Origin: Pandoraea capi
Lineage (GTDB): Bacteria > Pseudomonadota > Gammaproteobacteria > Burkholderiales > Burkholderiaceae
Reading direction: 5' to 3'
DNA length: 64,000 nucleotides
Assembly: GCF_902459735.1 (NCBI RefSeq)
Contig: NZ_CABPRV010000004.1
Span: forward strand, 186,001 to 250,000
This document shows positions 18,446-54,048 of the stretch, one piece after another (the stretch's first letter is position 1; each line of letters begins with the position of its first letter). The position numbers and the translations under genes were made by a program. A model generated the notes under the pieces. That model saw only the letters and a list, made by a program, of their open reading frames with translations, did no database searches and was not told the DNA's origin.

Positions 18446-18481
18446 AACAAAACGCGCTTGGTGGTTAAACCAAGCGCGTTT
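18446..18481 (-). terminator. Intrinsic terminator of the tRNA unit
   Basis: A 13-bp stem (AAACGCGCTTGGT / ACCAAGCGCGTTT) with a 6-nt loop; on the minus strand it is followed by a T-rich run, downstream of the tRNA-Glu gene. Confidence 0.85.
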
Positions 18482-18540
18482 CTCGACAACCGATCGTACG
18501 TCGTGCTTCCGGAGCTTTCCGCGAATCACGCCGCTAAATC

Positions 18541-18616
18541 TGGCGTCCCCTAGGGGATTCGAACCCCTGTACTCACCGTGAAAGGGTGATGTCCTAGGCC
18601 TCTAGACGAAGGGGAC
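18541..18616 (-). tRNA. tRNA-Glu (anticodon TTC)
   Basis: A 76-nt cloverleaf including an encoded CCA. The acceptor stem begins GTCCCCT, the anticodon loop CTTTCAC gives TTC, and the T arm has GGTTCGAAT. It lies downstream of tRNA-Ala in one minus-strand unit. Confidence 0.97.
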
Positions 18617-18632
18617 CTAAAGTCTTTCGTTT

Positions 18633-18708
<76 letters not shown>

Positions 18709-18726
18709 GTACGGCGAAGAAGTGAG

Positions 18727-18755
18727 ACTATAGCGTGCTTTTCCGAACTTGGGAA
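18727..18755 (-). promoter_or_regulatory. tRNA promoter
   Basis: On the minus strand TTCCCA (-35) is followed after 17 bp by TATAGT (-10), just upstream of tRNA-Ala. Confidence 0.6.
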
Positions 18756-18843
18756 GCCCCTCACCGAAATATTTTGGCGCAGCGAGATGTCACGGTCATG
18801 ACCCCATGCCCATCTCGCCAGTGCCAGCCGGTTCGCCGGGAGC

Positions 18844-38473: not shown

Positions 38474-38553
38474 TACGGCGATAGCTTAGGGTTGCCGTCA
38501 AGACATCGAGGACACGGGGAGCGCCGACGCAGCGATGCGCCGGCTCTATTACG

Positions 38554-39237
38554 TCAGTTCGTCATGCTGCGGCAGGACAAGCCCAGGGCAGTGCATGTCG
38601 TCGCGTCGATGTCGATCCGGTACGCCGCCACCAGACGGCCATCGATGCGGTAAGCCGCACCGAGCTTGTGTGTCGGCACGCCAAGGCGCACGAACAAACG
38701 CGCCAGACTAACGAATGTGACACCGATCAGCCGTCGCGCACCCAACGAACTGGCGGTGAATACCGCAGCACGCAACAATTCCCGAGCCCCCTGCATGGAC
38801 TGCTGCCCCGGGGCGCAGTCGGACTCAAAACCCTCGGCATGCGGCGGCTCCCAAGCGAAACGTGAAAGCTCCCATACGGGCGTATGCGATGCGCTATGCG
38901 CGTAAGCGCCTTCCCCCATGTCGAAACCGTCTCCCATGTGAATGGCCGCCGGAAGATCGTCTACGAGATGGGGGAAATGATCGCCGAGCAGATAGCGATG
39001 CGTGGCCGGCAACAGGCGGGCACATCCGACGATAGCGTCCTCATGCCGAAGCGTGACATAAATAGTGTCGTCCCGATCATATTCATCGGACTCCTCACCA
39101 TCCTTCGACATTCCGAACTGAGATGAAGACTTCATCTCCCATCCAAGTTTCTGCACGAAGACCCGATGGCGAAAGCGCGCGAGTTCGCCTCTTGCAGATG
39201 GGATCAACTGAGCACCGCGCATGACATCGACTCGCAT
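38554..39237 (-). CDS. LuxI-type acyl-homoserine-lactone synthase
   Basis: A 227-residue autoinducer synthase. Conserved positions are visible: R and F in RHRVFVQKLGW, the Asp pair in EYDRDDTIYV, R in GCARLLPA, and E and R in WELSRFA. It makes an acyl-homoserine lactone from acyl-ACP and S-adenosylmethionine. GGAGG stands upstream of the ATG. A perfect palindrome (39297-39312) lies 60 bp before the start, the usual place of a lux box, so the gene is probably autoinduced through the adjacent LuxR. Confidence 0.93.
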   Translation of the reverse strand: MRVDVMRGAQLIPSARGELARFRHRVFVQKLGWEMKSSSQFGMSKDGEESDEYDRDDTIYVTLRHEDAIVGCARLLPATHRYLLGDHFPHLVDDLPAAIHMGDGFDMGEGAYAHSASHTPVWELSRFAWEPPHAEGFESDCAPGQQSMQGARELLRAAVFTASSLGARRLIGVTFVSLARLFVRLGVPTHKLGAAYRIDGRLVAAYRIDIDATTCTALGLSCRSMTN

Positions 39238-39296
39238 TCCAAACCTCCATCGTTAGTAGATGAAGGCAGATTAGCGAGGGCGAAATGCAGCGAAAA

Positions 39297-39312
39297 CTGT
39301 CAACGTTGACAG
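39297..39312. promoter_or_regulatory. lux box 1 (CTGTCAACGTTGACAG), luxI promoter
   Basis: A perfect 16-bp palindrome of the CT-N12-AG type bound by LuxR proteins, 60 bp upstream of the luxI start. The identical 16-mer recurs at 40032, 44731 and 53889. Confidence 0.85.
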
Positions 39313-39533
39313 GTATGAAAATCATCAAGCAGACCGCAGGAATTAACCTTCAAAGATCGCTCATTTTTTGAGATAGCCAAGTGAATTCCGGAGTGTTTCG
39401 GTTAAGCACTCCGGGATCCGAACGAATCTGCAAGGCAATGATGCCAACAGCCTTTGCAACCCACACGGCCCGCAGGGTCGATAAGTCCGGGGGGCGATCT
39501 CTCGAATAATGAGGAAGGATGAAAAGATGCAAG

Positions 39534-39566
39534 AGCGGGCATGGCGATAAAATCGCCATGCCCGCT
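39534..39566. terminator. Strong terminator-like hairpin
   Basis: A perfect 15-bp stem (AGCGGGCATGGCGAT and complement) with a 3-nt AAA loop. It lies downstream of the decayed minus-strand gene; the T tails are short on both sides. Confidence 0.7.
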
Positions 39567-39668
39567 TTGGTGAGAGAGAAGATTAGACGGCTATCGCGTC
39601 ATTGCACGCACTGAACATCAATGCTGAACATCCGGCCGACAGTGAAAGTGAAATCGACTGGCCTGCTA

Positions 39669-40031
39669 TCAGGGTCTAGGAACCAGGCACCATGCACTAT
39701 ACGCCGCGCCGTAGCCGTTATAGTTCGCGACACACGTCAGGCCAGCAGTCCCTCTGATATAGAGAAGACCAAATCCTTGCTCACATTGACCCTGCACATC
39801 ACTCCAGAGATAGTCCTTGGAGCTGGCAGGAAATGGCGTCGTGTACACCTTTTTCATGATGTCCATTTCAGTAGTGCCAATTCTCCGCGCGGTCGATACG
39901 GAGTTGATCCAGTTCGCAGCGTACGCGCGTTCGTAAGCATGACGAGGCGGGAAAAAACGGCACACGTGGCGATCATCGGGCGCCGCGCGTGCCAATGTCC
40001 TCATCTCACTACTGAGATCGATGCCCGACAA
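39669..40031 (-). pseudogene. Remnant of a second large Ig-like/lectin-domain protein gene
   Basis: The last 85-90 codons match the C-terminal lectin-like domain of the 1463-aa protein gene next door: AANWINSVSTARRIGTTEMD against AIAWANSLGGRGIAHTEIEL, the same spacing of aromatic residues, and both end CLVPR-x plus 0-1 residues. The first 30 or so codons run through sequence homologous to that gene's promoter, and the nominal ATG abuts lux box 2. Promoter and C-terminal domain are therefore fused with leader, start and all repeats deleted. Expression as a protein is doubtful. Confidence 0.7.
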
Positions 40032-40047
40032 CTGTCAACGTTGACAG
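39937..40047. repeat. Duplicated promoter block, copy A
   Basis: About 111 bp aligns with 44637-44746: both contain GGGAAAAA(A)CGGCACAC, CTCATCTCACT, and then GATGCCCGACAA running directly into the lux box. Copy A serves the decayed gene, copy B the 1463-aa protein gene. Confidence 0.8.
40032..40047. promoter_or_regulatory. lux box 2, in front of the decayed gene
   Basis: The same CTGTCAACGTTGACAG 16-mer as upstream of luxI, within the duplicated promoter block. Confidence 0.8.
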
Positions 40048-40081
40048 GCGACGTGGGAATTTCATGAGGTGATCAATGGCA

Positions 40082-40114
40082 TAAAAAATGCCACGGCGTG
40101 AAATACCGTGGCAT
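40082..40114 (-). terminator. Intrinsic terminator after the 1463-aa protein gene
   Basis: A 9-bp stem (ATGCCACGG / CCGTGGCAT) followed on the minus strand by six T residues. Confidence 0.8.
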
Positions 40115-40207
40115 GAGGTGATGCTCCGTTTATCGGAGATTGAGGATTGATGAAAAGGCGGACTTAGAAAAATGATTGGTCTGCGCTATTCGCTTTTCCG
40201 ATCGGTG

Positions 40208-43200
40208 TCATCCATTCCTTGGGACCAAGCAAGTGGCTTTCGCGTTCGTCGAACCACCGCTTCCCGGAGTCGAACAATATATCCGGAGATACCAGATGTC
40301 GATCATCATCGAGCTATTCGCTCCACAAGTGGAGTTAGTGCATGACCAGTAAAAGTAAGACGCCCCATCTGGGTAATATCCTTGTACATAGAGAGATTTG
40401 AGCAGCTCGATCTCGGTGTGCGCTATTCCTCGTCCGCCTAAGCTGTTCGCCCACGCGATCGCTTGAGAATACGACATGCCGTAGTTGTGATTGAAAGCAA
40501 AGCGATATACGTTGCTGACGACAACCGGATAGGAAACGGTCGCCCCCCCGCTGTCCCGGATGGTAATCGTGGCGCTGCCGTTCCCCATGCCCGACACCTT
40601 GCCCGCACCGTTGACTGTCGCCACCGATGGGCGGCTTGAACTGTACGTGTACGGCGGTACACCGCCGGTGCCGACACGCGTGCCCGTATTGCCCGGCGCA
40701 TCCCGCCCTGTTGATGGCCACCCATCCTGCCTGACCGCAAGCCCGTTAAGCACCATCTGACTCGGCTCAACCCCCAGATCCGGCACTACCTCGATCTTCA
40801 ACCGCAGTTCGGGGAACAGACTGGCTTGCGCTTCATCGCTGCCGCCATCGAACGTCACCTTCATTTCTACACGAAGGTCCGAGGCGTCCTTCAACGCCTC
40901 TAGACGCGCACGCGGAATCGCCTTCGACAGCCCGGCCGTGACCTCCCCTGCCGTCACCCCCGACGCCTGCCACAGCGCAATCGTGTCGCTCTGACCGTTC
41001 GCCAGCGTGCCATGCACCCGCAGCCACACTTTCTGTCCCACTGCGATGGCGTGCCACGGCTCAACCGTCACACGAGGATCGCCGTCGAAGTCCGCCAGAC
41101 GCAGCACGCCCCCGTCTGCCTGCGGAATCTCCGGGGTCGGCAGATCGTCCGGCTCGAACTCATTGACGGTCAGATCCCGCACGCCGGAGGCGTAGTACCC
41201 CGACTCCCGAATCACCATGTAATGCACCGTCACCGTCTTGCCGATGTACGCCAGCACCTTGTCCGCATCCACTTCGATTTCCACGATGCCTGCCGCAGTC
41301 CCCGGCACCTGACCGAAGTCCGAACCGCCGTCCCACACCAGTTCGATGAGATCGGTCGGCTCCATGTCGTCGTACTGAACACGTACCGTTACGCCGTCGA
41401 GCGCGTCGATCGCATCCAGCTCGCCGTCGGGCGCGTCAACGACCAGCGGTTCCGGCAATGGCAGCGTGTGCGCAATGCGCAACGTGCGCACTCGGAACGG
41501 CACCGCGTCATCCTCGTTGTCACTACCGTCGAACGTCACTTTCACTTCGATACGAAGCTCGGATCCATCTTTCAGTTTCTCCAGATCGGCACGTTTGAGC
41601 ACGCTATTGAAGGGTTTGCCGCCTTCCGCTTCGGTCACGACATGACCGTTCTCCAGCGTGATCGTTGTCGGCCGATCCGTATCCAACGTGCCAAGGACGC
41701 GCACCCAGATGCGCTGTCCCGCCGCCATCAACGGCCAATTCGGCTGCCGCACCGTCGCATCACCCGTGAAGCTCGGCAGCGACACCACGCCATCCTCCTG
41801 CTCAACCACATTGGCTAACGGCAAATTGGTCGGCACGAAATTGTTCACGGTCAGGTTCAACGTATCGGAGTCAATCTCCTTTTCCCCTCGCTTGAACGTG
41901 TACATCACCGGCACCGTGCGACCGAGGCTCATCGCCACCTTGCCCGGCGGCACCACGATCTCCAACGTGCCGCTCGGATCGCCTGAAGCTTCAGCGAAGC
42001 TTGTATCGCCATCCCAGCTCAGTTGGATCTTGTCGGTGACCTGCATATCTTCGTATGTGATGACCACCGTCGCCCCGTCGCGCGCATCGGTCGGCTTGAG
42101 TACGCCTTGCTCCGCTTCTGCAACGTCCGGTGCGCCCAACGTCGGCAGGAACAGGCCCACCCGCAGGTTCAGCACATCGGACTTCATCACCCGGTTACCG
42201 CGTGTGATGGTGTAGTACACCGGCACTTCCTGCATCAGGAATCGCTCCACCACGGCCTTGGGAACGGTAAATTCGTAATCCATAGGCCCGATGATGTCGA
42301 CACCATCGCGATACTCGTCAGCGCCTTCTCCCCAATAGATGTCGAGCTTGTCACCGACTTTCATGCCATCGTGCCATGGCACGACAGTCGTCGCGCCCCG
42401 ACCGAACGCCTCTTCCGGCAAGTAGTCGCCATCGGCTTCCCGTACGGAAGGCGCAGGCCACTGGATCGCCCGGCTGACCTCCAGCATCACGTCTTCGGAC
42501 GGTGTCACAACGTCACCGACTTTCACGGTGTAATTCACGGTCACGATCAGGCCGTCGACAGCCGCCACCTTGTCGTGCGGCACATACATCACGAGGTCCT
42601 GTCCTACTGTGTTGTCGCTCACGATGAACGTCTGTGTGAACTCGCCGACCGTCCCCTGGCCGAACCATGCTGTCACCACGTCGTTACGCGCCATACCGGG
42701 ATAGGCCTTGATCGTCACGGGGGCGTCGTCGGGCACGTCATCCGGGTCGAGCACACCGTCGATCGCATCGTCCACGACAGGGGCTGGCAGCCGCTCTGGC
42801 GGCAGCGGCAACACCTTGAACTGATACGACTCAGATTCCTGTTCCGCGCCGCTCGCGCGCTTGACCCGATAGAGCACTGTCACCGTGTCGCCGCCGTTGG
42901 CATTGGCTTCTACGACGCCACGGGAAACCTTCACCTCCATATGCCCCACGGAGGAGACCGGCACGGTCTTGCTCTCCTGCCCGCCCTCCGACGTCCCCAG
43001 CCAGTACCACGTCACCGAATCGCCTACCGCCATGCTGGGCCACTGAGGGATCACCATCAAGGCGTCGTTCGGACCCGGCCCCGGATCGTATTCCCCATCG
43101 GCTTCGGATACCACATAGGGCGGCACGAGTTTGACGGTCGAGAGCACCGATAACGTGATCGACTCGGACTGGCGCAAGCTCGTACCCGACAGCACCGTGT

Positions 43201-44599
43201 AATACACATCGACCGTGCCGCCCGCCAATGCGTCGACCTTGCTCTTGGGCACCACGAATGTCACCGTCTCGCCGATATGCGTGTCGTCAAGCGTTACCGA
43301 CTCCTGATGGGTGACCGGCGTGCCGTCGACGGCGGTCCCGATCCAATGCACGGTGACGATGTTCTCTTCTGCCATGCCCTCCCACTCGGCAATGTCCACA
43401 TGCGCACCGTCCGGCGCCAGCGTGGGATCGAGCTCGTCGCCCAACGCCTCGCGCACCACCGGGGCAGGCAAGGTTCGTTCACTGCCGATGATGTCGTAGT
43501 TGGAGCGCAGCGACACCCCTTTGCTTTGCCCCGCGCTATCGAATACGCGATATCTGATCGACCCTTCGCCCGGTACAACCGGTGCCAGCGAGGCATTCGG
43601 CAACATGAACTGAAGAATCGGCTCGCCCGTGATGTCCAGCGTCACATCGAAGGTCACCGGCATCCCATCGTAGGAACGCCCGGTAAACGTCAGCACCGCC
43701 TGATCGCCCGCGACCATATCGCCGTTGAGCATCGTGATGGCAGTGGCATCCGCGCCATTCAACGCGTCGAAGTCGAGCACACCGCCGGGGGCATTCATCA
43801 ACGCCGGAGCGGTGTAAATCGCGTCGCCGACACTGACCTCGATGAATGCCGGGGGCGCGCGAAGCGAATAGTTCGTCACCACGTCGTAGACATCGTAAGT
43901 GACCGCCATGTCCTCGCCGTCGCCAGCCTCCCTGATAGTCTCCTCATCGACCATCACGACAATGTCCGTATCAACCTCATCGAGCGATATCGTTTTCACC
44001 GGGAGCGACTGCGATCCCCAATACACTGTCAACCGGTCGCCTTGCGCCATGTTCAGCCATCGCGGAATCGTGAGCGCGATCCCTTCCGAAGGAATCGGCG
44101 GCTCGATCGGGCCGGCGGGCAGCACCGCCAGCGCCAGCCGCTCGTTGATCGGCGGCGTCGATTGGTCCGGGTCAAGTCCGCCCGGAATCGTGCGCTTGAC
44201 ACGAATCAATGCCGGCGGCGACGGTTTCACTTCGCCGCTGATGTTCGACACCAACTCGAACCACACCTCCACTTCGCCGTCGTCCTGATTCAACACGTGC
44301 TGCACCGGAACTTCCATCTGATACGACGTGTCGTCTGCATTCGTGATGATGATCGCATCCGCAACGATGTCGTCTCGCCCCCAATACAGCCGCAGCGTAT
44401 CGTTTCGCTCGAACTCGTTTGCCCACGGCACCAACACCGTGATCGGCTGTCCGATGTTGTGCAGACTCCGGTAGCCGATACCGCCCCACGTTTCCGCATC
44501 GAGCACGCGCGGCGCCTGAAGGACTCGGGTATCGGCCCGCTCTTCGTCGGCGCTCAGCCGCGATAGCTCGGGAAACAGGGATGCATCTCTGATATTCAT
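40208..44599 (-). CDS. Large Ig-like repeat protein with C-terminal lectin-like domain
   Basis: 1463 residues. I count about eleven repeats of 105-120 residues, each with a P-x-V-x-E-A-x-G-x-L-D-P-type opening, then V-x-W-x-x-M-x-x-G-D, a VYWxG strand and a VPxxxV strand, an all-beta Ig-like pattern. Near residues 1280-1370 is a Big_2-type domain (PSVATVNGAGKVSGMGNGSA), and the last 95 residues resemble a C-type-lectin-like module (YSQAIAWANSLGGRGI, YFYWSCTN) with four Cys. No Sec signal peptide or anchor is visible, so the export route is unclear. GGAGG precedes the ATG. It shares lux box 3 with the divergent 789-aa gene. Confidence 0.82.
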   Translation of the reverse strand: MNIRDASLFPELSRLSADEERADTRVLQAPRVLDAETWGGIGYRSLHNIGQPITVLVPWANEFERNDTLRLYWGRDDIVADAIIITNADDTSYQMEVPVQHVLNQDDGEVEVWFELVSNISGEVKPSPPALIRVKRTIPGGLDPDQSTPPINERLALAVLPAGPIEPPIPSEGIALTIPRWLNMAQGDRLTVYWGSQSLPVKTISLDEVDTDIVVMVDEETIREAGDGEDMAVTYDVYDVVTNYSLRAPPAFIEVSVGDAIYTAPALMNAPGGVLDFDALNGADATAITMLNGDMVAGDQAVLTFTGRSYDGMPVTFDVTLDITGEPILQFMLPNASLAPVVPGEGSIRYRVFDSAGQSKGVSLRSNYDIIGSERTLPAPVVREALGDELDPTLAPDGAHVDIAEWEGMAEENIVTVHWIGTAVDGTPVTHQESVTLDDTHIGETVTFVVPKSKVDALAGGTVDVYYTVLSGTSLRQSESITLSVLSTVKLVPPYVVSEADGEYDPGPGPNDALMVIPQWPSMAVGDSVTWYWLGTSEGGQESKTVPVSSVGHMEVKVSRGVVEANANGGDTVTVLYRVKRASGAEQESESYQFKVLPLPPERLPAPVVDDAIDGVLDPDDVPDDAPVTIKAYPGMARNDVVTAWFGQGTVGEFTQTFIVSDNTVGQDLVMYVPHDKVAAVDGLIVTVNYTVKVGDVVTPSEDVMLEVSRAIQWPAPSVREADGDYLPEEAFGRGATTVVPWHDGMKVGDKLDIYWGEGADEYRDGVDIIGPMDYEFTVPKAVVERFLMQEVPVYYTITRGNRVMKSDVLNLRVGLFLPTLGAPDVAEAEQGVLKPTDARDGATVVITYEDMQVTDKIQLSWDGDTSFAEASGDPSGTLEIVVPPGKVAMSLGRTVPVMYTFKRGEKEIDSDTLNLTVNNFVPTNLPLANVVEQEDGVVSLPSFTGDATVRQPNWPLMAAGQRIWVRVLGTLDTDRPTTITLENGHVVTEAEGGKPFNSVLKRADLEKLKDGSELRIEVKVTFDGSDNEDDAVPFRVRTLRIAHTLPLPEPLVVDAPDGELDAIDALDGVTVRVQYDDMEPTDLIELVWDGGSDFGQVPGTAAGIVEIEVDADKVLAYIGKTVTVHYMVIRESGYYASGVRDLTVNEFEPDDLPTPEIPQADGGVLRLADFDGDPRVTVEPWHAIAVGQKVWLRVHGTLANGQSDTIALWQASGVTAGEVTAGLSKAIPRARLEALKDASDLRVEMKVTFDGGSDEAQASLFPELRLKIEVVPDLGVEPSQMVLNGLAVRQDGWPSTGRDAPGNTGTRVGTGGVPPYTYSSSRPSVATVNGAGKVSGMGNGSATITIRDSGGATVSYPVVVSNVYRFAFNHNYGMSYSQAIAWANSLGGRGIAHTEIELLKSLYVQGYYPDGASYFYWSCTNSTCGANSSMMIDIWYLRIYCSTPGSGGSTNAKATCLVPRNG

Positions 44600-44636
44600 G
44601 ACGGACCTCCAGACGAGCATGGCCTTGGGGGCACAT

Positions 44637-44746
44637 GCGTGACAGACGGGGAAAAACGGCACACGCCGCGCGCATTCGGCGCGGCGTGTGCCGTCCCCCT
44701 CATCTCACTGCCTCGGTCGATGCCCGACAACTGTCAACGTTGACAG
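44637..44746. repeat. Duplicated promoter block, copy B
   Basis: The partner of 39937-40047, upstream of the intact 1463-aa gene; see copy A for the shared elements. Confidence 0.8.
44731..44746. promoter_or_regulatory. lux box 3, bidirectional
   Basis: The 16-mer extended to the perfect 20-bp palindrome AACTGTCAACGTTGACAGTT (44729-44748). It lies 131 bp before the minus-strand 1463-aa gene and 64 bp before the plus-strand 789-aa gene. Confidence 0.85.
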
Positions 44747-44810
44747 TTACCCGGCGAAACTTGCAGGGCGACACTTGGCGAACCCTTCCCTCTCCGAATG
44801 GAGGTTTGTC

Positions 44811-47180
44811 ATGACAGTCAAGCGCAAGGCCCTTTTACGCACGGACAACAAGGCGGCGAGCCTCAATGTGCCTGCGACCCAGCCATCTGGGGAGGAAGAT
44901 CCATCCTTCCAGCCTACCCCCCCGATTATCGACCCGAACGCGCTGGCCGATCGGGAGAACATCCCCGACAACGTCTACCCGTTCAACATCGTGAAGGCGA
45001 CATTTGAGGGACAGCCCATCAACTTCACTGCGCCCATCGAGGCTCACTACACGCTGGGCTATCGAACCCGGTATTACGTGGACGGTGTGTCTGATGGCGT
45101 GGAGGGCTCGATCGGGCAACCGGATTTGGACGCAGGCTTCTTCACCATCGGGGTCCAGCCGACGTTGCTGACGCACGGGATGCACACGCTTACATACGGC
45201 GTGAAACCGGAGTTCGACCCCGATTGGGGCGAGAACTCAGTGGAGACGTACTTCACACTGGACTTCGAGGAACCGGAGAATCTCGGCGAGGGCGAAGTGC
45301 CGGTAGAAGCAGAGAACGGACTGACCGACCAGATTCTCACGAATCTGGGTAACGTTTTGGAGGTCACCCTCCCCAGTTGGGGCAACCAGTTCTACCTGGA
45401 TAAGATCGTCGGCATCATCCGGCAGGTCGGTGGCGCGGATCATACAATCCCGGAAGTCAAGATCCCCTACCCTTACGACTTTTCGGACCCCGTGGTACTG
45501 GAATTCCCCCGCGCGCTTCTCGAACAGGTCGGCGACGGGATTCTCGAAATCACCTACAAGATCACCGACCTCGCTGGCAACGAGTCGGACGAAGCGTTCG
45601 TCAAACTCATCGACGTGTTCATTCAGGGCGGGATCGACGATCTGGAACCGCCCGAGGTTCCGCTGCACGAAGACGATGATCTCATTGTGGAAGAGGATGC
45701 CCGCACGCCAGTGGTCGTACGGATCCCTGGGCATGCGAGCGTCGAACCCGGCTTTACCATCGTGGTGCTATGGGGCAGTCGCGCGCTGGACGGCGTCGTT
45801 TTCAATGGTGATAACACGCAACCGTTCATGCTCGATGTCGAAGTGCCCTATGGCGTGGTCGCCGCCGAATGGAATGAGAACAAGGACGCCGAGGAGTACG
45901 CCGATATCGACGTGAACTATGTCGTCTATGGCGCCGGTGGCCGGGAAGTCGGGCGCCCCGACACCGCGACCCCGGTTCGCGTGAATCTGAGTCAGGCGGG
46001 CGGCGAAGATCCCGATGAGGAAACCCCGGAAAACGAAGCACTCGGCGCACCCATCGTGCGGCATTCGGCATGGCAGGCCGGGGAGCGCGAGAACTATATT
46101 CCCGATGCCTCTGTCCAGGTCGACCATACGATCGTCATTCCCTGGTTCGTTAGAGCAGCAGATGGCACGATCACGGATCAGCATGCCTTCTTGCCCGGCG
46201 ACAAGATCATCTTCATGTATGACGGCGTTGCCGCAGGTGAATACACGATAGCCAATCAGGACGTGGTGAACGAGATCGATCTCGAGCGTGCGCTGCTGTG
46301 GCAGACGGTGGAAGCTGCGGGCAGCGGCGAAAAAGATGTCCAGTACATCGTGGAACGCACGCTGATTCCCGACGGACAAGTCAACACCAGTCTCTCTCCC
46401 CCCACTGCCGTGGAAGTCGAAGACACCGGCGATCTGCCCGGCGGGGGCGAGCCCCTCGATGACGCATATTTCAACGACGCCGTCATTACCTGGCGAATCG
46501 TCGTCGAACATGGCGGTTTCGCGCCGATGACGGTGCCCCTCTATGCAAATCAGGAGATCGGCGATCGCGTTCGGGTACACGTGCTGTGTAACGCATGGGC
46601 CAGCGGTCAACCCGACGGCGCGCCTCTGCCCGATGCGGAGTGGGGAGGTCCCGACGAAGTGAACGAGGTCCCCGGGTTCGATTTCGAAACCATCATCACC
46701 GACAGGAATGCCGGCGCGGATCTGACATTTGCGTGGCCGCAGGCAGTGCTGGTCAATGCCTATCCCCTGGCCCGGGCACGTATCCAATACTCAGTGTCGC
46801 GAAATGACGGTTCCGGCACCGTGACTTCGAACGAGGGCGGCAGACACATCGTCGAGCTCGGCAACATGCCGAACCCACCACAACCGGCGGGTACGCAATC
46901 GGTCGGTAGCCGAACGGTACGCCGTCACCGTCCGACACTCGCAGAAGCCCTTGCCGGCGTGGGCAGATCGCCGGAGGCACGGCAGGCCGCACTCAATGCC
47001 TACGTGCGCGCCTGGCGAACCACTTCGTCGCAGCGACGTGCCTTCCGGGAATACAAGCAGGAGCGCGAGGCACAACTGCTGAAGCTCAGCAAAACCGAGC
47101 ACCGGATCGACGATCCGCTGCAACGAAAGCTCGCCGAGATCGCGGCTCGCCCAACGCCAGATCCATTTAAGAAGGAGTAA
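44811..47180 (+). CDS. Large Ig-like protein, divergent partner
   Basis: 789 residues, start behind GGAGG (6-bp spacing); the leader TGGAGGTTTGTCATGA is similar to that of the divergent 1463-aa gene. The N-terminal 90 residues are Pro-rich and look disordered, followed by about four or five Ig-like beta domains (for example EVTLPSWGNQFYLDKIV, and VVVRIPGHASVEPGFTIVVL with LWGS). The last 85 residues form a basic, helical tail rich in Arg (TLAEALAGVGRSPEARQAAL onward). No signal peptide, membrane segment or RTX motif is seen. Function unknown; likely induced with luxI. Confidence 0.78.
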   Translation: MTVKRKALLRTDNKAASLNVPATQPSGEEDPSFQPTPPIIDPNALADRENIPDNVYPFNIVKATFEGQPINFTAPIEAHYTLGYRTRYYVDGVSDGVEGSIGQPDLDAGFFTIGVQPTLLTHGMHTLTYGVKPEFDPDWGENSVETYFTLDFEEPENLGEGEVPVEAENGLTDQILTNLGNVLEVTLPSWGNQFYLDKIVGIIRQVGGADHTIPEVKIPYPYDFSDPVVLEFPRALLEQVGDGILEITYKITDLAGNESDEAFVKLIDVFIQGGIDDLEPPEVPLHEDDDLIVEEDARTPVVVRIPGHASVEPGFTIVVLWGSRALDGVVFNGDNTQPFMLDVEVPYGVVAAEWNENKDAEEYADIDVNYVVYGAGGREVGRPDTATPVRVNLSQAGGEDPDEETPENEALGAPIVRHSAWQAGERENYIPDASVQVDHTIVIPWFVRAADGTITDQHAFLPGDKIIFMYDGVAAGEYTIANQDVVNEIDLERALLWQTVEAAGSGEKDVQYIVERTLIPDGQVNTSLSPPTAVEVEDTGDLPGGGEPLDDAYFNDAVITWRIVVEHGGFAPMTVPLYANQEIGDRVRVHVLCNAWASGQPDGAPLPDAEWGGPDEVNEVPGFDFETIITDRNAGADLTFAWPQAVLVNAYPLARARIQYSVSRNDGSGTVTSNEGGRHIVELGNMPNPPQPAGTQSVGSRTVRRHRPTLAEALAGVGRSPEARQAALNAYVRAWRTTSSQRRAFREYKQEREAQLLKLSKTEHRIDDPLQRKLAEIAARPTPDPFKKE

Positions 47181-47286
47181 CATTTGGCGACGACGGCGTG
47201 ACGCTGTCTCAAAACGAAAGCGTCACGACCTCGTCGCACTTCCAAACTCTCTACCGCCAGGGTGTTCCACACCTTGGCGATTTGCT

Positions 47287-48315
47287 ATGGTCAAGTTCCT
47301 CATCGGCGACATTGCAGGCTTCGATACGGACACCTTCACGCTAGTCTCGCAGCATGACGCGAGTCTAAGCGTACCGCTCGGCGCCGCCGCCGGGCGTTGC
47401 CTTCAGGTGCTGCTAGAGGCCGAGGGCGAGATCGTGACCAAGCGTAATTTGCTCACGCAAGGCTGGGAACAGTACGGCGCAGTCGTCTCCGACAACAATC
47501 TAAGTCAGTCCATCGTACGCATCAGACGCGGCTTGCAGCAACTCGGTGTCGATCCCACCGTGCTGGCGACGTTGCCACGAATCGGATACCGCCTGACTAA
47601 CGCGAAACGAATCAGTCCGTTCGTCGATGCGCTCACGAGCGCTCCGCTCAGCCCTGAAAATGGACCGGCCATTGCCGCCTCACCTTGGGATAACGCTCAA
47701 ATTGTCGGCATTTCTAAAGCAACGTCCAATGACGGAAGCAACTCCGCTCAAACACCGGTTTCCCCGAACGCATCCAGCTTGACAACGCGCCCGGCCTCGG
47801 CGCCCTCCGTGGCCATATCACTTCGCAACGTCGAGCCCCACGATGCTTCGCCGAACGCCGATCGAAAGCCGGTCGGCGAAACCGCGCCGGCATCGCCCAA
47901 CGCCGTTGCGACACCCGCCGCGCATCCCCAATGGCGGCCCGGATGGTCCACCGCGAGCGTCTGGTCAGGGGTGGCTATCGTAAGTGCCATATTGGCCGGC
48001 TGGGGCCTTCCCTCGTTACGCGGCGACCTGCGAACCAATGCGAGCATCGCTCAATGGACGCCACTCGAAGACGCCCCCGACAATCGCGTCTTCATCGCTC
48101 CCGATTTCAAACAGGATACGGACTTCGTCAAACAACGTCTCGCGCGGCTCGCAAGTACTCCACCGCTGAGCATCGACGACGCGCACGAACGATACGTCTA
48201 CATCAACGGTTCGGGCGGTCTCGACGTCTTCAGTTACTTCCTGTGTCGCGAACCGATCGGACGCGCCAATTCCGATTGCCTGTCTTACTTGCTGATCGAC
48301 CACACAAACTCATGA
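47287..48315 (+). CDS. ToxR/CadC-type membrane-bound transcriptional regulator
   Basis: 342 residues: an N-terminal OmpR-type winged helix (about residues 5-108, with NNLSQSIVRIRRGLQQLGV and TLPRIGYRLT), a long Ser/Pro/Ala-rich linker, one transmembrane helix (about 219-237, VWSGVAIVSAILAGWGL) and a short periplasmic domain with two Cys (FLCREP, DCLSYLL). This is the ToxR/CadC/MarT layout of a regulator that acts from the inner membrane. It overlaps the next gene by ATGA and follows the 789-aa gene by 106 bp. No strong ribosome-binding site is visible. Confidence 0.85.
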   Translation: MVKFLIGDIAGFDTDTFTLVSQHDASLSVPLGAAAGRCLQVLLEAEGEIVTKRNLLTQGWEQYGAVVSDNNLSQSIVRIRRGLQQLGVDPTVLATLPRIGYRLTNAKRISPFVDALTSAPLSPENGPAIAASPWDNAQIVGISKATSNDGSNSAQTPVSPNASSLTTRPASAPSVAISLRNVEPHDASPNADRKPVGETAPASPNAVATPAAHPQWRPGWSTASVWSGVAIVSAILAGWGLPSLRGDLRTNASIAQWTPLEDAPDNRVFIAPDFKQDTDFVKQRLARLASTPPLSIDDAHERYVYINGSGGLDVFSYFLCREPIGRANSDCLSYLLIDHTNS

Positions 48316-48854
48316 CGTCCCCTGCCCCCAGCACTTCGCACGAATCCACCCGACTTCGTCGTCGCACCGTTTGGCTGGGCGTGATCGTAGCTGCCATCGT
48401 GCCCTGGGGCGCAGCATGGTGGCTGATACCGGATGACCGTGCCGATTGGCGATGTCTGGCAAATATCGAATTCGACACTCATATTTCCGATGGCACCCGC
48501 GTTCAGGTTTTCGGCACGATGGAGTCGAACTATCACCGGGATGGCACAGGCACAGCCCGTTTCACGGGGCGCGTGCGGCAAGGCAAAACGTCGAGCGTCG
48601 TCCATCGGGCAAGCGAGTTCGAGTACGTTGCGCTACGAAGCTGGCTGCGTGTGCATACCGTACGTACGAGCCGCCTGAATAACGACGATACGCCGGACGA
48701 TCTGGTCTACCGTTTCGTGTATCGCGGCTTTCAGGCGGACTACACCGATTATTTCCAGGCGATGCGCGTGGGCGATGGCGCCAGCGTCGGCTATAACGAT
48801 CAGCCTCGCGTGTATTGCGCGCCTGAAGCGCCAAAATCGCGCCCGCCTGCCTGA
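48312..48854 (+). CDS. FidL-like membrane protein, partner of the ToxR-type regulator
   Basis: 180 residues: a short cytosolic N terminus, one transmembrane helix (about residues 19-40, VWLGVIVAAIVPWGAAWWLI), then a periplasmic beta domain starting at WRCLANIEFDT with an RDGTGTARFTGR turn. The pattern resembles FidL, the partner of MarT in Salmonella, and more loosely ToxS/PsaF-type stabilisers. Translational coupling to the ToxR-type gene supports the pairing. The family match is from memory of the pattern and is moderate. Confidence 0.7.
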   Translation: MTSPAPSTSHESTRLRRRTVWLGVIVAAIVPWGAAWWLIPDDRADWRCLANIEFDTHISDGTRVQVFGTMESNYHRDGTGTARFTGRVRQGKTSSVVHRASEFEYVALRSWLRVHTVRTSRLNNDDTPDDLVYRFVYRGFQADYTDYFQAMRVGDGASVGYNDQPRVYCAPEAPKSRPPA

Positions 48855-48883
48855 AACACCGTCCGACTTCAAGGCCACGCCAA

Positions 48884-48909
48884 GAAAAAAGCCCGACACC
48901 CTTGCGGGC
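48884..48909 (-). terminator. Intrinsic terminator after autotransporter 1
   Basis: A GCCCG...CGGGC stem with an 8-9-nt loop is followed on the minus strand by TTTTTTCTT, 80 bp beyond the autotransporter stop. Confidence 0.7.
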
Positions 48910-48987
48910 AGTCAGGCCAAATGGAGAACATGGAACAACAACACTTCTCGGGCGACGCGCGCACGTCACCCTTGAACCGCAGACACC

Positions 48988-51240
48988 TCAGAATCGATAG
49001 CGCACGCCGACGTTGACACCCCACGGCTTATCGAGACGTTTGCCGATCGAGTAACTGCCTTCGGCATACGCCTGCAAATTCTTCGCCATCTGCGCAGCGA
49101 GGCCCGCACCGACTTCGAAGCGAGTGCCCGAGATGTCCTGCTGCAGATCGATACCGTTCACACGTACCGAGTTGCTGCGCACGAATTCGTGCGTCACTGC
49201 AAGCTTGCCGTACGGCTGGAAAGTGCCCTTGGCCGTCTCGAATGTTTTACCAAAGTGCATACCGACCGTGCCGAGCAGCGACTTCGTGCTGCTGGTCGTT
49301 GCATGCATACCGTTATCGAGCGTGAAATCCGATCCATTTGCCCACATGCCGGCCACCTGCCCGAACGGCTCGATAAACCAGCGATTGCCGAATTCGATCT
49401 TGCGCCCGACTTCTGCCGACAGACCCACGCCATGATTGACGAAATCGCCCTTGCTGCGCATACCGTCGCTCATCCGGACATCCAGCTCGGAGCCGAATCG
49501 GTTGTACTTGAGCACACCGTCGAAATAGAAACCGTTATTCGCCAGCCAGGTCGCGTATGCGCCGACGGTATGGCTCTCGATCGTGCCGCGCGAACCATTA
49601 TTGAACTTCAGGCGGCTGGTGCTGGTGCCGAACATGCCACCGACCAGCCAGCGCCCCGCGTCGTTTTGCATCACGATGGCGTCGCCACCGGCGATGACAC
49701 CCCACTGGTCCTGACTGTATCCCGTACCCGCCTCAGGGCGTGCGTTGTACCGGCTACCGAACGTACGCGCCCAAACACCGCCCGTATCGCCCTCGCCCAG
49801 ACGCACTTCGCCCAGTCGCGAACGCAACACGGTGTGCTCACCTAGCCACGCGGTCGGCAATGCGCTGTGAATGTTCACGACCGCGTCGGTCCCTGGCGTA
49901 AGCTCTTCGGTGCGCTCCAGATACCACGATTGCTCGCCACCGGATTCACCGGTCGATTTCAGCACGTACGAATACACGCCAGCATCGACCTTGTCGCCCA
50001 CGAGGGAGAACATGCCGTCACCACCGCCCTGTTCGACCAGAAGCTGCGTTTCGACACCGCCTTCCGTACCCGTGTTCTTCACGTGCAACTGGTGCGCACC
50101 GGTGGCGTTTTCGACGTCAAGCAAATCGGCGCCGCCCACTTGCAGGTCAGCCTGCATCTGGAACGTGCCGTTGCCGGATAGATCGGTGACATCGAGCTTG
50201 TGGAACGTGCCGTCGGCCGCCGTGCCATGGATATCGACGAAGCCGCCGTCCATCGTCATCAGGGCCATGCTGCTGTCGCCAGTCAGTGCCCATTTACCGT
50301 TTGAATTCACAGCCAGCGAGTCAACGTTGATCAGTGCCCCGGTCAACGAGCCGTGATTCTGCAACGTCAGATCCAGCCTTGCGCTGCCGTCGCTCACAAT
50401 GTCGCCGGTCAGTTGGGCGTTGTCGACGGTGACGGTCGAATCAAGCCCCTCCCTGAGTTCGATCAACTTGCCGTCGGCCCCTGAAATCGTCGTGCCATTC
50501 GCAATCGTCAGCGATACGGTCTTGCCATCGACATGGTCCTTGTCGGCCTGGATCAGAATGCCAGCGCCCTCGATGCCTTCGATATGCGTTCCGTTGAGCA
50601 CGGCCACGGATTCGTTGCCGTTCGGGCCGCTGGACAGCCAGATTCCGTTCATCATCCCGGTCACGGATCCGCCATTGATCAATACCCGGGAGTCCCGTGA
50701 GTACAGACCAGCGTTGTGCGTGCCGATCACGCCTTCCAGGCTGCTGACATGCGTGTCGTTCAGCTCGATCGTGGCCCCTGCCCCCATATGCACACCGAAC
50801 CCATAACCTTTCACGGTGCTGTTGATGAGCGTCGCAACCGAACCTTCCGTATTTCCCCCGGCGGCACCGAGCCACAAACCGGCGCCTCGTGCACTCGAAA
50901 TGTTGGAGTTCGCAATCGTCGCGGTCGTATTCTCCAGCGAGATCCCCGCGTTTACTCCCCCAGTGGAGTGGATTTCCGCGCCGTCGACATGCAACGTGCC
51001 ACCGTTAGCGACCCGAATCCAATTGGTTGCGGCCCCCGGATGGATTGTCAGCGTGCTGCCGTTGAGCACTTGCCACATCTCCACGGCATCGCCAGGTCCA
51101 TAAAGATCGTGCTGGCCGCCATCGATCAGGTTAGCCGCGTTCGCGGTAGTGCTCAGGCAGGCAAGAAGAATTGCGACACCTTGGGCGATCCGGTGTCGAT
51201 GGGGTGACGCAGCTAAGCGCTGCGGCGTTGTCGTACGCAT
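48988..51240 (-). CDS. Autotransporter 1 (type Va secretion)
   Basis: 750 residues. A long signal peptide (cleavage probably after TTANA, residue 35) is followed by a pertactin-like passenger of short repeated strands (GGTLHVDGAEI, GGSVTGMMNGIWL) to about residue 480, then an outer-membrane beta-barrel of about 265 residues starting near VWARTFGSRYNA and ending VGVRYRF with the required terminal Phe. GGGAAA stands before the ATG. It is a paralogue of autotransporter 2 just upstream, from which it is separated by 171 AT-rich bp, so it may have its own promoter. I see no lux box in that gap. Confidence 0.92.
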   Translation of the reverse strand: MRTTTPQRLAASPHRHRIAQGVAILLACLSTTANAANLIDGGQHDLYGPGDAVEMWQVLNGSTLTIHPGAATNWIRVANGGTLHVDGAEIHSTGGVNAGISLENTTATIANSNISSARGAGLWLGAAGGNTEGSVATLINSTVKGYGFGVHMGAGATIELNDTHVSSLEGVIGTHNAGLYSRDSRVLINGGSVTGMMNGIWLSSGPNGNESVAVLNGTHIEGIEGAGILIQADKDHVDGKTVSLTIANGTTISGADGKLIELREGLDSTVTVDNAQLTGDIVSDGSARLDLTLQNHGSLTGALINVDSLAVNSNGKWALTGDSSMALMTMDGGFVDIHGTAADGTFHKLDVTDLSGNGTFQMQADLQVGGADLLDVENATGAHQLHVKNTGTEGGVETQLLVEQGGGDGMFSLVGDKVDAGVYSYVLKSTGESGGEQSWYLERTEELTPGTDAVVNIHSALPTAWLGEHTVLRSRLGEVRLGEGDTGGVWARTFGSRYNARPEAGTGYSQDQWGVIAGGDAIVMQNDAGRWLVGGMFGTSTSRLKFNNGSRGTIESHTVGAYATWLANNGFYFDGVLKYNRFGSELDVRMSDGMRSKGDFVNHGVGLSAEVGRKIEFGNRWFIEPFGQVAGMWANGSDFTLDNGMHATTSSTKSLLGTVGMHFGKTFETAKGTFQPYGKLAVTHEFVRSNSVRVNGIDLQQDISGTRFEVGAGLAAQMAKNLQAYAEGSYSIGKRLDKPWGVNVGVRYRF

Positions 51241-51411
51241 GATGGTCGTTTCCCAAAAAAGTCAGAACGACGCGAAGCGTACGGACAAACCCTAAAAAAA
51301 CACGATTAATACGATAAAATACACCAATATTCACTGAAATTCATTGATATTTCACCTGACTCGCGAATCACAGCCCTATTTTTTCACTTGCAATACCCGG
51401 CATCGAACCAA

Positions 51412-53661
51412 TCAGAAAGTGTAACGAACCCCCAATTGCACACCCCAAGGCTGGTTGATGTGACGTCCCACGCTGGATTCGATTTCTGAGTAAATCTGAA
51501 GATTGCGACGCACTTGCCCTGTCACCCCGGCACCGAATTCGAAGCGAGTACCCGAAAGATCGCTGTTGAAACCAATGCCGTTGACCATAACCTGATTGCT
51601 TTTGATGAACTCCTGGACCAGCGCAAGCTTGAGGTAGGGTTGAATGACGCCACCGCCCGACAGCGACAATGTTTTGCCAAATGCGGCCCCCACACGCAGT
51701 TGCACCGAGCCGGTGCGCGACGTATTGGATTGCATGCCGTTGGTCAGCGTAAAGTCGTCGCCACCGACACGCAACAGCGCGAGGTGGGCGTACGGCTCAA
51801 GGAACCAGTCACCATTGAATTTCATGTGACGACCGAATTCGAAGGTCGCCCCGAAGCTGTTTTCGCCAAAGCTGCCGTGCGCGCCTTCACCATCGCTCAT
51901 GATGACGTTGGCGTCGTTCTGGAAGTGGTTGTAACGCACCACCGTCTCGAAGTAGTAGCCTGTGGCGCCGAGCCACGTCCCGTACAGACCCGCCGTGTAG
52001 CTGTTCACACCGCCGGTAGAACCACCATCGAACGAAAGCTTGCTGTGGCTCGTACCGAGCAACCCGCCGACAAGCCAGGTCCCGCCCCAGGCCTTGCCGA
52101 CGACGGCATCCGCCCCTCCCATGACACCGTACTGCGTCTGACGGTAGTCGACACCCGACGTGGGTGTCGCGTGAAACTGCTTGCCGAACGTGCGCACCCA
52201 CGCGCCGCTGTTGCCCTGGTCCTGAAGACGCACGTCGCCGAGTCGGGATCTCAAGATAGCCTGCTCGCCGTACCAGACTGTCGGCGCCACGCCCGAAATG
52301 CCGATGACAGTCTGTGCGCCCGGCGTGAGATCTGGTCCACCCGGTTCCCCGGGCTGCGCGTCAGTATTGAGCACCCAATTGTTACCGTCCTGCCGCAAGT
52401 CGTAACTATAGACACCCGCATCGACCTTGCCGCCGACGAGTGAGAATGCGGCCCCACCGCCGCCGGTCGTCACGACCGTCAACGGCGCAATCACACTCGG
52501 CTCGGCCCCGGAATTCGTGATGTGAAGCTGATACGTGCCCGTCGCGTTGCCCGTGATCGCCAGCAGATCGCCCGAATGGGTGGCGATGTTGGTGTTCATG
52601 TTGAAAGCGCCGTTACCCGAAAGTGTGCCGAGCGTGAGCGTGTGGAACGTGCCGGTGCCTGCAGCGGTGCCGGAAATATCGATCGTGCCGCTATTCATCG
52701 TCACAGTCGGCACCGTGTTGTTGCCTGTCAGCACCCACTTCCCGCCGGAATTCACAGCAAGTGAGTTCAGATTGACAAGCGAGCCGGTGAGCGACGCGTT
52801 GTTCTGAAGGGTGAGATCCACGACCGCCGTTCCATCGCCTGTCACGTTGCCCGTCAGTTGCGAATTGTCCACGACGACCGTCGAGGTGATTGCACCGACC
52901 GCTTTGATGACGTTGCCATCGCTTCCTGTGATCTTGGTGCCGTTTTCGATATTGACGCTTGCGGTTCTCGCGCCGGTGACGCCGGGTTGCGGCTGTATCA
53001 GAATGCCCGGGCCCGTATTACCCGTCACTGTCGTGCCGCTAAGCGTCGTGGTAGACGCGGTGCCATTCGTCGCCGTCGCGACCCACACCCCGTTCAACCC
53101 GCTCACGCTGCCACCAGTGACGGAAAGCGTCGAATCGAAGTTCGCCAGGCCAGCGTGAAATGGCCCCGTTCCGCTGCTGGTCAAGGTGCTGTTGGTAATC
53201 GTAAGGGTACCCTTCGTGCCAACCGTCGCACCGAATGTTGCCCCTGAGATCGTGCTGTTGGAAATCGTGACTACGGGGGCTATCGTTGACCCGCCGAAAG
53301 AGCCCATCGAAACACCGGCGCCACTGTTGCTGCTCACGGTCGAGTTCGAGATCGTGCCTGTCGTATTGAGAAACTGGATGCCGTCGTTCGCACCAATCGT
53401 GGCCGATACCGTCGCCCCATCGACGCTCGTCGAACTTCCCGATTCGACCGTAATGAAGTTAGTAGCGGCTCCCGGCGAGACCGTGAGCGTTCCGCCGTTG
53501 ATGACCTGCCACGATTCGGTCGGATCTCCTGGCGCCGCCACCGTTTGGGAAACTCCATCCACGATCGCGCCATGAGCTTGGGCGGCCATACAGGCGACAC
53601 ATACGGCAACGGCCTGGGCTATCGGGCGACGCGTGAGCGCCTTGGGCTTTAGCGTTTTCAT
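51412..53661 (-). CDS. Autotransporter 2 (type Va secretion)
   Basis: 749 residues with the same plan as autotransporter 1: signal peptide (MKTLKPKALTRRPIAQAVAV, cleavage near residue 31), a Ser/Thr/Gly-rich passenger opening with GGTLTVSPGAATNFITVESG where autotransporter 1 has STLTIHPGAATNWIRVANGG, and a C-terminal barrel ending LGVRYTF. The start at 53661 follows GGGAGA; an upstream in-frame ATG at 53706 is less likely. Lux box 4 lies 225 bp upstream. Adhesion or aggregation is a family expectation only. Confidence 0.92.
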   Translation of the reverse strand: MKTLKPKALTRRPIAQAVAVCVACMAAQAHGAIVDGVSQTVAAPGDPTESWQVINGGTLTVSPGAATNFITVESGSSTSVDGATVSATIGANDGIQFLNTTGTISNSTVSSNSGAGVSMGSFGGSTIAPVVTISNSTISGATFGATVGTKGTLTITNSTLTSSGTGPFHAGLANFDSTLSVTGGSVSGLNGVWVATATNGTASTTTLSGTTVTGNTGPGILIQPQPGVTGARTASVNIENGTKITGSDGNVIKAVGAITSTVVVDNSQLTGNVTGDGTAVVDLTLQNNASLTGSLVNLNSLAVNSGGKWVLTGNNTVPTVTMNSGTIDISGTAAGTGTFHTLTLGTLSGNGAFNMNTNIATHSGDLLAITGNATGTYQLHITNSGAEPSVIAPLTVVTTGGGGAAFSLVGGKVDAGVYSYDLRQDGNNWVLNTDAQPGEPGGPDLTPGAQTVIGISGVAPTVWYGEQAILRSRLGDVRLQDQGNSGAWVRTFGKQFHATPTSGVDYRQTQYGVMGGADAVVGKAWGGTWLVGGLLGTSHSKLSFDGGSTGGVNSYTAGLYGTWLGATGYYFETVVRYNHFQNDANVIMSDGEGAHGSFGENSFGATFEFGRHMKFNGDWFLEPYAHLALLRVGGDDFTLTNGMQSNTSRTGSVQLRVGAAFGKTLSLSGGGVIQPYLKLALVQEFIKSNQVMVNGIGFNSDLSGTRFEFGAGVTGQVRRNLQIYSEIESSVGRHINQPWGVQLGVRYTF

Positions 53662-54048
53662 ACGGTTCTCCCACACATAGGCATGACAAACCGATCGATA
53701 CGACAAAATCGGCGGACGCTCCCACCAAGCGAACCGCCGAGAACCGAGCCCCTAGCCTGTCCACGCCATCGCCCCCGAGGTCACGGACTGTCGCGCCGCC
53801 CTCTCCGCGCAAGGGAAAACCCTATGCAATCATGAGGTTGCAGCATCTTTGTTGATTGAACGTTAGGTTCCGGCGCACGAAACCGCACCTGTCAACGTTG
53901 ACAGGTGTCTCCACGGTGCTTTCGTGTAATGCTCGGAACGCGGCCGTCTCGGCGCGTGACACGCCTAGGGGCGGCGCAACAGGGGAAAAGCTGCCTCAGT
54001 TGCAGCGGCGGGAGGGTAAGACGAGGGCCCGTCGGACAGGGATATGGA
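53662..54048. other. Gap (387 bp) upstream of autotransporter 2
   Basis: It contains the leader and presumably the promoter of autotransporter 2 and lux box 4. Plus-strand frames across it (53856-54173, 53905-54330) have no ribosome-binding site or family features and run into the convergent GT9 gene, so I do not call them. Confidence 0.6.
53886..53907. promoter_or_regulatory. lux box 4, upstream of autotransporter 2
   Basis: The common 16-mer (53889-53904) is flanked by matching CAC and GTG, giving a perfect 22-bp palindrome, the longest of the four. Confidence 0.82.

What the first reader, a model, noticed from the sequence alone, without database searches (positions are those of the whole stretch)
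39297..53907. Four copies of one perfect lux-box palindrome define a local quorum-sensing regulon
CTGTCAACGTTGACAG occurs exactly at 39297, 40032, 44731 and 53889. The first is 60 bp upstream of luxI. The others stand before a decayed gene, between two divergent large Ig-like genes and upstream of an autotransporter. Four exact 16-mers within 15 kb cannot be chance, and I noticed none elsewhere in the window. LuxR sites commonly have CT-N12-AG form. The inference is that the adjacent LuxR, with the LuxI product, switches on a set of large surface or repeat proteins; I know of no described regulon of this content.
Basis: partly seen in the sequence, partly recalled or inferred. Interest (0 to 1): 0.92.

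Follow-up and report, generated by a model that had tools for sequence, protein, structure and literature searches.

The report
Quorum-sensing regulon of giant repeat proteins
In about half of the Pandoraea species examined, one nearly invariant 16-base switch, the same one that sits before the gene for the cell-density signal, also sits before genes for very large repeat, adhesin-like and toxin-like proteins, so these bacteria probably make them mainly when crowded.

Summary
In detail: CTGTCAACGTTGACAG is exact at 39297, 40032, 44731 and 53889 and nowhere else in the window, even at 3 mismatches. "Local" is too narrow: a fifth exact copy lies 128 kb away, plus two one-mismatch copies. In the genus, 17 of 32 species hold 131 copies (at most 1 mismatch); the reversed control finds none. 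Exactly those 17 have luxI. The 16 with LuxR1 have 3-13 copies (in G002 luxR is interrupted); G026, without LuxR1, has one, before luxI. In 5 of 7 fetched genomes of other genera the lone copy lies 60-61 bp before a luxI about 43% identical. 128 of 131 sites are intergenic. On gene-facing flanks a -10-like hexamer starts 24 bp beyond the 16-mer, centring the box near -43.5, close to the classical lux-box position. Targets include luxI, Ig-like giants, autotransporters, RHS, VRP1/Big_1, eCIS-core, M66-protease and lectin proteins. A well-supported, untested LuxR regulon: new member of a known kind, unusual content. The luxI box was already reported (PMC6691176).

The parts
37760..38473 (+). luxR (LuxR1): autoinducer-binding and GerE DNA-binding domains, 237 aa
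   Evidence: Pfam PF03472 1e-30 and PF00196 3.3e-18; copy at least 64% identical in 16 of 32 genus genomes, one of them (G002) with a stop inside
38554..39237 (-). luxI, AHL synthase, 227 aa, convergent with luxR
   Evidence: Pfam PF00765 1.4e-10; homologue in 17 of 32 genus genomes
39297..39312 (.). box 1 (exact 16-mer) of the luxI promoter
   Evidence: kept at 0-2 mismatches 54-63 bp before luxI in 16 of 17 Pandoraea, and 60-61 bp before luxI in 5 genomes of two other genera
39268..39273 (-). -10-like hexamer TAATCT facing luxI
   Evidence: offset 23 after the box
39669..40031 (-). remnant gene: lectin-like C-terminal tail of an Ig giant behind a copy of the giant's upstream region; the rest of the gene is missing
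40032..40047 (.). box 2 (exact), in the duplicated upstream region
   Evidence: 111 bp at 80% identity to the region of box 3
40208..44599 (-). Ig-like giant, 1463 aa, intimin-like C-terminal Ig domain and variable lectin-like tail
   Evidence: NCBIfam intimin E 0.00089, far below its cut-off; PDB intimin E 0.037; tail alignment
44702..44707 (-). -10-like hexamer TGAGAT facing the Ig giant
44731..44746 (.). box 3 (exact), shared by two divergent genes
44770..44775 (+). -10-like hexamer GACACT facing the partner gene (weak at its first base)
44811..47180 (+). partner giant, 789 aa, no Pfam match; family in 14 of 17 lux+ and 2 of 15 lux- genomes
48988..51240 (-). second pertactin-type autotransporter, downstream of the first; co-regulation possible, not tested
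51412..53661 (-). pertactin-type autotransporter; homologue behind a box in 15 genomes
53860..53865 (-). -10-like hexamer TAACGT facing the autotransporter
53889..53904 (.). box 4 (exact)

Best explanation
CTGTCAACGTTGACAG is the binding site of the adjacent LuxR (LuxR1). The LuxI product accumulates with cell density and binds LuxR1. LuxR1 then binds as a dimer to this perfect dyad, centred near -43.5, takes the place of a -35 element and recruits RNA polymerase to a -10 element that starts 24 bp beyond the box. This raises luxI itself (positive feedback) together with the Ig giant and its divergent partner, the autotransporter and, elsewhere in the chromosome, an eCIS-core protein, a DUF3472/ricin-lectin protein and others. 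In related species the same box stands before RHS, VRP1/Big_1 (Tc-like), M66-protease, beta-propeller and uncharacterised families. Shown here: the sites, their positions, their co-occurrence with luxI and luxR1, and the spacing. Inferred: binding, the AHL requirement, the direction of control (activation) and what the proteins do.
For: Box-bearing species (at most 1 mismatch) and luxI species are the same 17 of 32. The 16 with a LuxR1 gene have 3-13 sites; G026 has luxI but no LuxR1 and keeps only the luxI site, with no other even at 2 mismatches. The luxI box is kept in 16 of 17 Pandoraea, and in 5 of 7 fetched foreign genomes the single exact copy is 60-61 bp before a luxI 42-45% identical. 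128 of 131 sites are intergenic, and 125 of 131 have a gene start facing them within 700 bp. A TAnnnT hexamer at offset 23 occurs on 26 of 124 gene-facing flanks after removal of near-duplicates, at most 4 at any other offset from 10 to 49, and on 4 of 86 other flanks; the offset of a 17-bp sigma-70 spacer shows 0. Taking one flank per family, luxI left out, offset 23 is the best in 400 of 400 draws and beats shuffled flanks in 400 of 400. The C4 family occurs in 9 of 32 genomes, all lux+, each with the box 59-61 bp upstream.
Against: There is no expression or binding data. In G002 luxR1 has an in-frame stop while 10 boxes remain, so either the stop is recent or an assembly error, or the boxes do not need LuxR1. 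G004 (luxI lacks its 5' part) and G014 (in-frame stop) keep 12 and 8 boxes, so control by a self-made AHL cannot hold in every species as assembled. Two lux- species (G013, G021) carry the partner and autotransporter families, and Ig-type genes, without a box within 3 mismatches in the stretches fetched. Non-facing flanks also show some excess of T at offset 28 (38 of 103). At up to 3 mismatches the own-genome count is near that of the reversed control (24 against 22). 13 of the 16 lux+ species on a groEL tree form one clade, 4 changes in all, so the species are not independent.
Confidence: 0.86

Rival explanations
1. LuxR1 binds the boxes as an AHL-free repressor (EsaR-like, recalled): it keeps the genes off at low density and the AHL releases it.
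For: luxI and luxR are convergent, as in EsaR-type systems (recalled); two species keep luxR and boxes with a damaged luxI (G004, G014).
Against: The boxes sit near -43.5 with a fixed distance to the -10-like element, about where the lux box is reported for activation (PMC7585371, passage). A repressor would not need such exact spacing across 27 families.
Confidence: 0.07
2. The palindrome is the site of another regulator (for example a LuxR solo or the winged-helix gene at 47287-48315) that merely travels with the luxI locus.
For: LuxR homologues exist in 31 of 32 genomes; the winged-helix gene has homologues in the locus of three more species; G002 keeps 10 boxes with an interrupted luxR1.
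Against: The solos found at 33-36% identity occur in box-free species too. The single box in other genera marks luxI with a LuxR homologue beside it. Loss of LuxR1 in G026 goes with absence of every site but luxI's.
Confidence: 0.06
3. The copies are a mobile or duplicated repeat, or ordinary -35 elements (the 16-mer holds TTGACA), without quorum control.
For: Box 2 did arise by duplication together with its flank; TTGACA is present.
Against: Column conservation on the flanks fades within a few bases of the box. No -10 signal at a 17-bp spacing but a strong one at 24 bp. No site at most 1 mismatch away in the 15 luxI-free species.
Confidence: 0.01

Closest known systems
Pandoraea luxI/luxR1 and its lux box (PMC6691176; section 18 read, other passages by word search)
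   Same: Same genes, convergent order, a 20-bp lux box upstream of luxI reported for Pandoraea species.
   Different: The parts read name no other box-bearing promoter and no regulon. Here: 131 sites in 17 species, the target families and the promoter geometry.
CepIR regulon and cep box of Burkholderia cenocepacia (PMC1766932; passages)
   Same: A LuxR-type box overlapping the -35 region before the synthase gene (72 bp to the cepI ORF in its Table 2), with 55 predicted boxes in promoter regions.
   Different: The cepI box printed there is a degenerate dyad; the Pandoraea box is a perfect 16-mer, exact in 91 of 131 sites.
CepR-activated BapA large surface protein and BclACB lectins, B. cenocepacia H111 (PMC3426421; passages)
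   Same: AHL control of a giant surface protein and of lectins.
   Different: BapA goes with a type I secretion operon. The Pandoraea Ig group mostly lacks a Sec-like N-terminus by a crude test (4 of 44) and no shared secretion operon was looked for.
Yersinia entomophaga Tc toxin cocktail (PMC10847048; passages)
   Same: A set including Tc and RHS proteins and StcE; removing AHL synthesis cut producing cells by two thirds; release by lysis.
   Different: [quoted passage not shown] here most candidate genes have a box of their own.

Membership tests
LuxI/LuxR quorum-sensing pair | AHL synthase domain in LuxI, autoinducer-binding plus GerE domains in LuxR, neighbouring genes | tested here: met
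   Pfam matches above cut-off; convergent at 37760-39237
LuxI/LuxR quorum-sensing pair | synthesis of and response to an AHL | not testable with these tools
   needs mass spectrometry and reporters
lux-box promoter activated by LuxR | 16-20 bp dyad of CT-N12-AG form upstream of luxI | tested here: met
   also in two other genera
lux-box promoter activated by LuxR | box centred near -42.5, in place of the -35 element | tested here: met
   -10-like hexamer at a fixed offset puts the centre near -43.5; start sites not mapped
lux-box promoter activated by LuxR | binding by the cognate LuxR with AHL | not testable with these tools
   needs gel shift or ChIP
LuxR regulon | box-bearing promoters only where the LuxR gene is present and whole | tested here: inconclusive
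   16 of 16 genomes with a LuxR1 gene have at least 3 sites; of 16 without, 15 have none and G026 has one, before luxI. But LuxR1 of G002 (10 sites) has a stop inside
LuxR regulon | expression changes in luxI or luxR mutants | not testable with these tools
   no transcript data

The most novel reading that the evidence does not exclude
In Pandoraea one LuxR with a fixed DNA site drives, in each species, a different and fast-changing set of giant modular proteins: Ig shafts with interchangeable lectin-like or RCC1 tails, VRP1/Big_1 and RHS proteins, eCIS-core and protease proteins, many without a Sec-like signal. The signal synthase drifts (39-92% identity over the matched parts) and in some species is damaged while receptor and arsenal remain, so those species answer to neighbours' signals.
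Probability: 0.3. Interest if true: 0.78.

Novelty: new member of a known kind. Interest (0 to 1): 0.62.

Why it matters
Pandoraea lives in soil and in cystic fibrosis lungs. Its quorum-sensing genes are catalogued (PMC6691176), but the paper listings seen here showed no regulon for them. A perfect 16-mer with a fixed -10 spacing gives a ready list of candidate targets per species, many of them uncharacterised giants whose function and export are open questions. The natural variants (a species with luxI but no luxR and a single box; species with a damaged luxI or luxR that keep many boxes) make the link between receptor, signal and regulon directly testable.

Tried and rejected
Chance: excluded by shuffles, by the reversed control, which gives 0 in 32 genomes, and by intergenic placement. 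Ordinary -35 element: rejected, no -10 signal at the 17-bp spacing.

A leader terminator common to the regulon: a strong hairpin with a U-run lies in the leader of the Ig giant in the window and in G006, but by the stricter score over all flanks it is no commoner on gene-facing sides (6 of 150) than on others (4 of 87). An alternative palindrome in the lux- species G013 and G021: none convincing. A first gene caller missed luxR and luxI and was retuned; starts remain approximate, luxI being called short in several genomes. Solved-structure searches for family C3 and for the partner gave nothing useful. The housekeeping-type neighbour group (T at offset 28 in 1 of 18, against 90 of 128 for the others) was defined after seeing the families, so it illustrates and does not test. 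Near-duplicate flanks were dropped before the count (159 to 124 gene-facing, 103 to 86 other). Of 13 foreign genomes with an exact copy 7 were fetched; the listing gave no places for the other six. I first took luxI of G011 for split; translation shows one open frame with about 20 extra residues, so it is not counted as damaged.
Full report
Setting. The window is C4:186001-250000 of a 5.85 Mb Pandoraea genome. Convergent luxR (37760-38473 +) and luxI (38554-39237 -) carry the expected Pfam domains. Convergent luxI/luxR1 and a 20-bp lux box before luxI are known in Pandoraea (PMC6691176, section 18 and passages).

The observation. The 16-mer is exact at the four stated places and at no other place with up to 3 mismatches; 0 of 100 shuffles reach four. 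The whole genome holds five exact copies and two with one mismatch, against none for the reversed control. With up to 3 mismatches the genome gives about as many as the control (24 against 22). Even so, 3 of the 4 two-mismatch places stand before homologues of regulon families (L144, L145, L146), two of them with a good -10-like hexamer; the fourth (L147) looks like chance.

The genus. With at most 1 mismatch, 17 of 32 Pandoraea genomes hold 131 sites, 1-13 each (91 exact, 40 with one mismatch), and 15 hold none; the reversed control is 0 in all 32. luxI occurs in exactly those 17. A LuxR1 gene at 64% identity or more occurs in 16 of them and in none of the other 15, whose best matches by E-value are 26-36% identical, or none in G017. 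G026 (89% complete) has luxI with its box, but no LuxR1, Ig giant, partner or autotransporter match in the 11.4 kb around it, no partner match in the whole genome, and no further box at 2 mismatches. On the other side, luxI of G004 lacks its 5' part and that of G014 has an in-frame stop, while both keep a full-length luxR and 12 and 8 boxes. And luxR of G002 has an in-frame stop although 10 boxes remain. G026, G004 and G014 suggest that boxes follow the receptor rather than the synthase; G002 speaks against a strict rule unless its stop is recent or an assembly error. On a groEL tree of 30 of the 32 genomes lux presence needs four changes, and 13 of the 16 lux+ species in it form one clade, so the species are not 32 independent tests.

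Other genera. The exact 16-mer occurs in 28 of 398 family genomes: 15 of 32 Pandoraea with 3-12 copies, and 13 of 366 others with one copy each. I fetched 7 of those 13. In five (four of one genus, one of another) the copy ends 60-61 bp before a luxI homologue 42-45% identical to the window's, with a luxR homologue beside it; two show no luxI within the 8.5 kb fetched. Within Pandoraea 16 of 17 luxI promoters keep the box at 0-2 mismatches, 54-63 bp before the start; G004 lacks that region. The box is therefore likely an old luxI element, and its multiplication the Pandoraea feature.

Promoter geometry. I called genes around all 131 sites with a codon-usage script (coding density 0.885). 128 of 131 sites are intergenic; 125 of 131 have a start codon facing them within 700 bp. 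On gene-facing flanks TAnnnT starts at offset 23 in 26 of 124 non-redundant flanks, at most 4 at any other offset from 10 to 49, and 4 of 86 on the other flanks; the 17-bp-spacer position shows none. With one random flank per family (27 families, luxI left out), offset 23 is the maximum in 400 of 400 draws and exceeds shuffled flanks in 400 of 400. A -10 hexamer there centres the 16-mer near -43.5; the lux box is reported at 42.5 nucleotides upstream of the start (PMC7585371, passage). In the window the four box-gene pairs tested (luxI, Ig giant, partner, autotransporter) have T at the last -10 position, and the sequence shows the same for box 2 (read by eye).

The targets. The 151 facing genes form 28 families by single linkage: an Ig-giant/partner group (44 proteins, 16 genomes), the pertactin-type autotransporter (15 genomes), luxI (13 in this listing, because of caller misses), an unnamed cysteine-containing family C3 (13 proteins, 8 genomes), an unnamed family C4 (9 genomes, box always 59-61 bp upstream), DUF5122 propellers, RHS proteins, VRP1 plus Big_1 proteins, and single cases such as an M66/StcE-type protease; in the window's genome also an eCIS-core protein (L005) and a DUF3472/ricin-lectin protein (L007). 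Some facing genes are metabolic or transport neighbours, probably bystanders. C4 occurs in 9 of 32 genomes, all lux+. C3 homologues occur in 14 lux+ genomes and in 2 lux- ones, G013 and G021, the same two lux- genomes that carry the partner family and have no box at most 3 mismatches away in the stretches fetched. The 119 facing genes left after setting aside luxI and nine metabolic-type families (chosen by me) have a median of 556 aa, against 306 for 833 other called genes of the loci. A crude test finds Sec-like N-termini in autotransporters (14 of 15) and C3 (7 of 13), but in 4 of 44 of the Ig group, 0 of 9 of C4, 0 of 5 RHS and 0 of 3 VRP1/Big_1 proteins.

Tails and the remnant. The 1017-aa giants of G006 and G031 are 94-100% identical over the first 900 columns, 67% over the next 100 and 47% over the last 17; the two tandem giants of G019 likewise fall to 66% and 49% at the end. 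The tails align as a cysteine-containing, lectin-like domain mostly ending in CLVPKNG ('lectin-like' is my reading); others end in RCC1 repeats. G019 has two full tandem giants, each with a box, so a deleted tandem copy is the simplest reading; a store of spare tails is possible but untested.

Literature. The 16-mer is in the text of no held paper. The Pandoraea quorum-sensing listings seen (25 of 27 papers; the top 12 of 960 and 15 of 990) showed no regulon study for the genus, and a search combining quorum sensing with RHS, Tc, autotransporter and Ig-like (7 papers) none with this content. Subscription journals are mostly not held. CepR in B. cenocepacia controls a giant surface protein and lectins (PMC3426421, passages), so quorum control of such proteins is not new in itself.

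Verdict. Observation confirmed, interpretation supported and widened. The mechanism is the ordinary LuxR activator type. The content, its turnover between species and the natural variants of luxI and luxR are the interesting part.

Noticed in passing
L069 (G004) near 2340-2873; L039/L096 (G014): luxI lacks its 5' part (autotransporter sequence runs up to it) in G004 and has an in-frame stop in G014, while luxR is full length and boxes remain: possible receiver-only species, or assembly errors.
   Followed up: partly
L062 (G002) 12146-12856: luxR1 has an in-frame stop although luxI is open and the genome has 10 boxes.
   Followed up: partly
L091 (G011) 1888-2631: luxI is one open frame with about 20 extra, low-complexity residues in the middle; its box has two mismatches.
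   Followed up: partly
L128 (G026) 5303-6875: luxI with its box but no luxR1; an unrelated 126-aa gene is in its place and the giants and autotransporters are not there.
   Followed up: yes
window 40211-40720 (-), L078 and L141: The C-terminal 100 aa or so of Ig giants differ sharply between otherwise near-identical proteins; tails are lectin-like or RCC1-like.
   Followed up: partly
L155 (G021) 17934-18950; L157 (G013) near 6548-7204: In two lux- species a LuxR solo (about 25% identity) lies about 1 kb from a C3-family homologue; in G021 it is also about 5 kb from an autotransporter beside an Ig-type and a partner gene.
   Followed up: partly
window 47287-48315: Regulator with a Trans_reg_C winged helix and, by eye, a membrane segment (ToxR-like); homologues follow the partner gene in three other species.
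   Followed up: no
window 44655-44693: GC-rich hairpin followed by a T run just after the predicted start of the Ig-giant transcript; similar in G006 and, by eye, at box 2; not general in the regulon.
   Followed up: partly
L006 4937 (C3:210936): One-mismatch box before a thiolase gene with a -10-like TAAGCT: an unexpected metabolic candidate target.
   Followed up: no
L148-L151 (another genus): A second, 3-mismatch box (CTGTCATAGTTGCCAG) lies 33-34 bp upstream of the point homologous to the first residue of the luxR homologue: possible autoregulation there.
   Followed up: no
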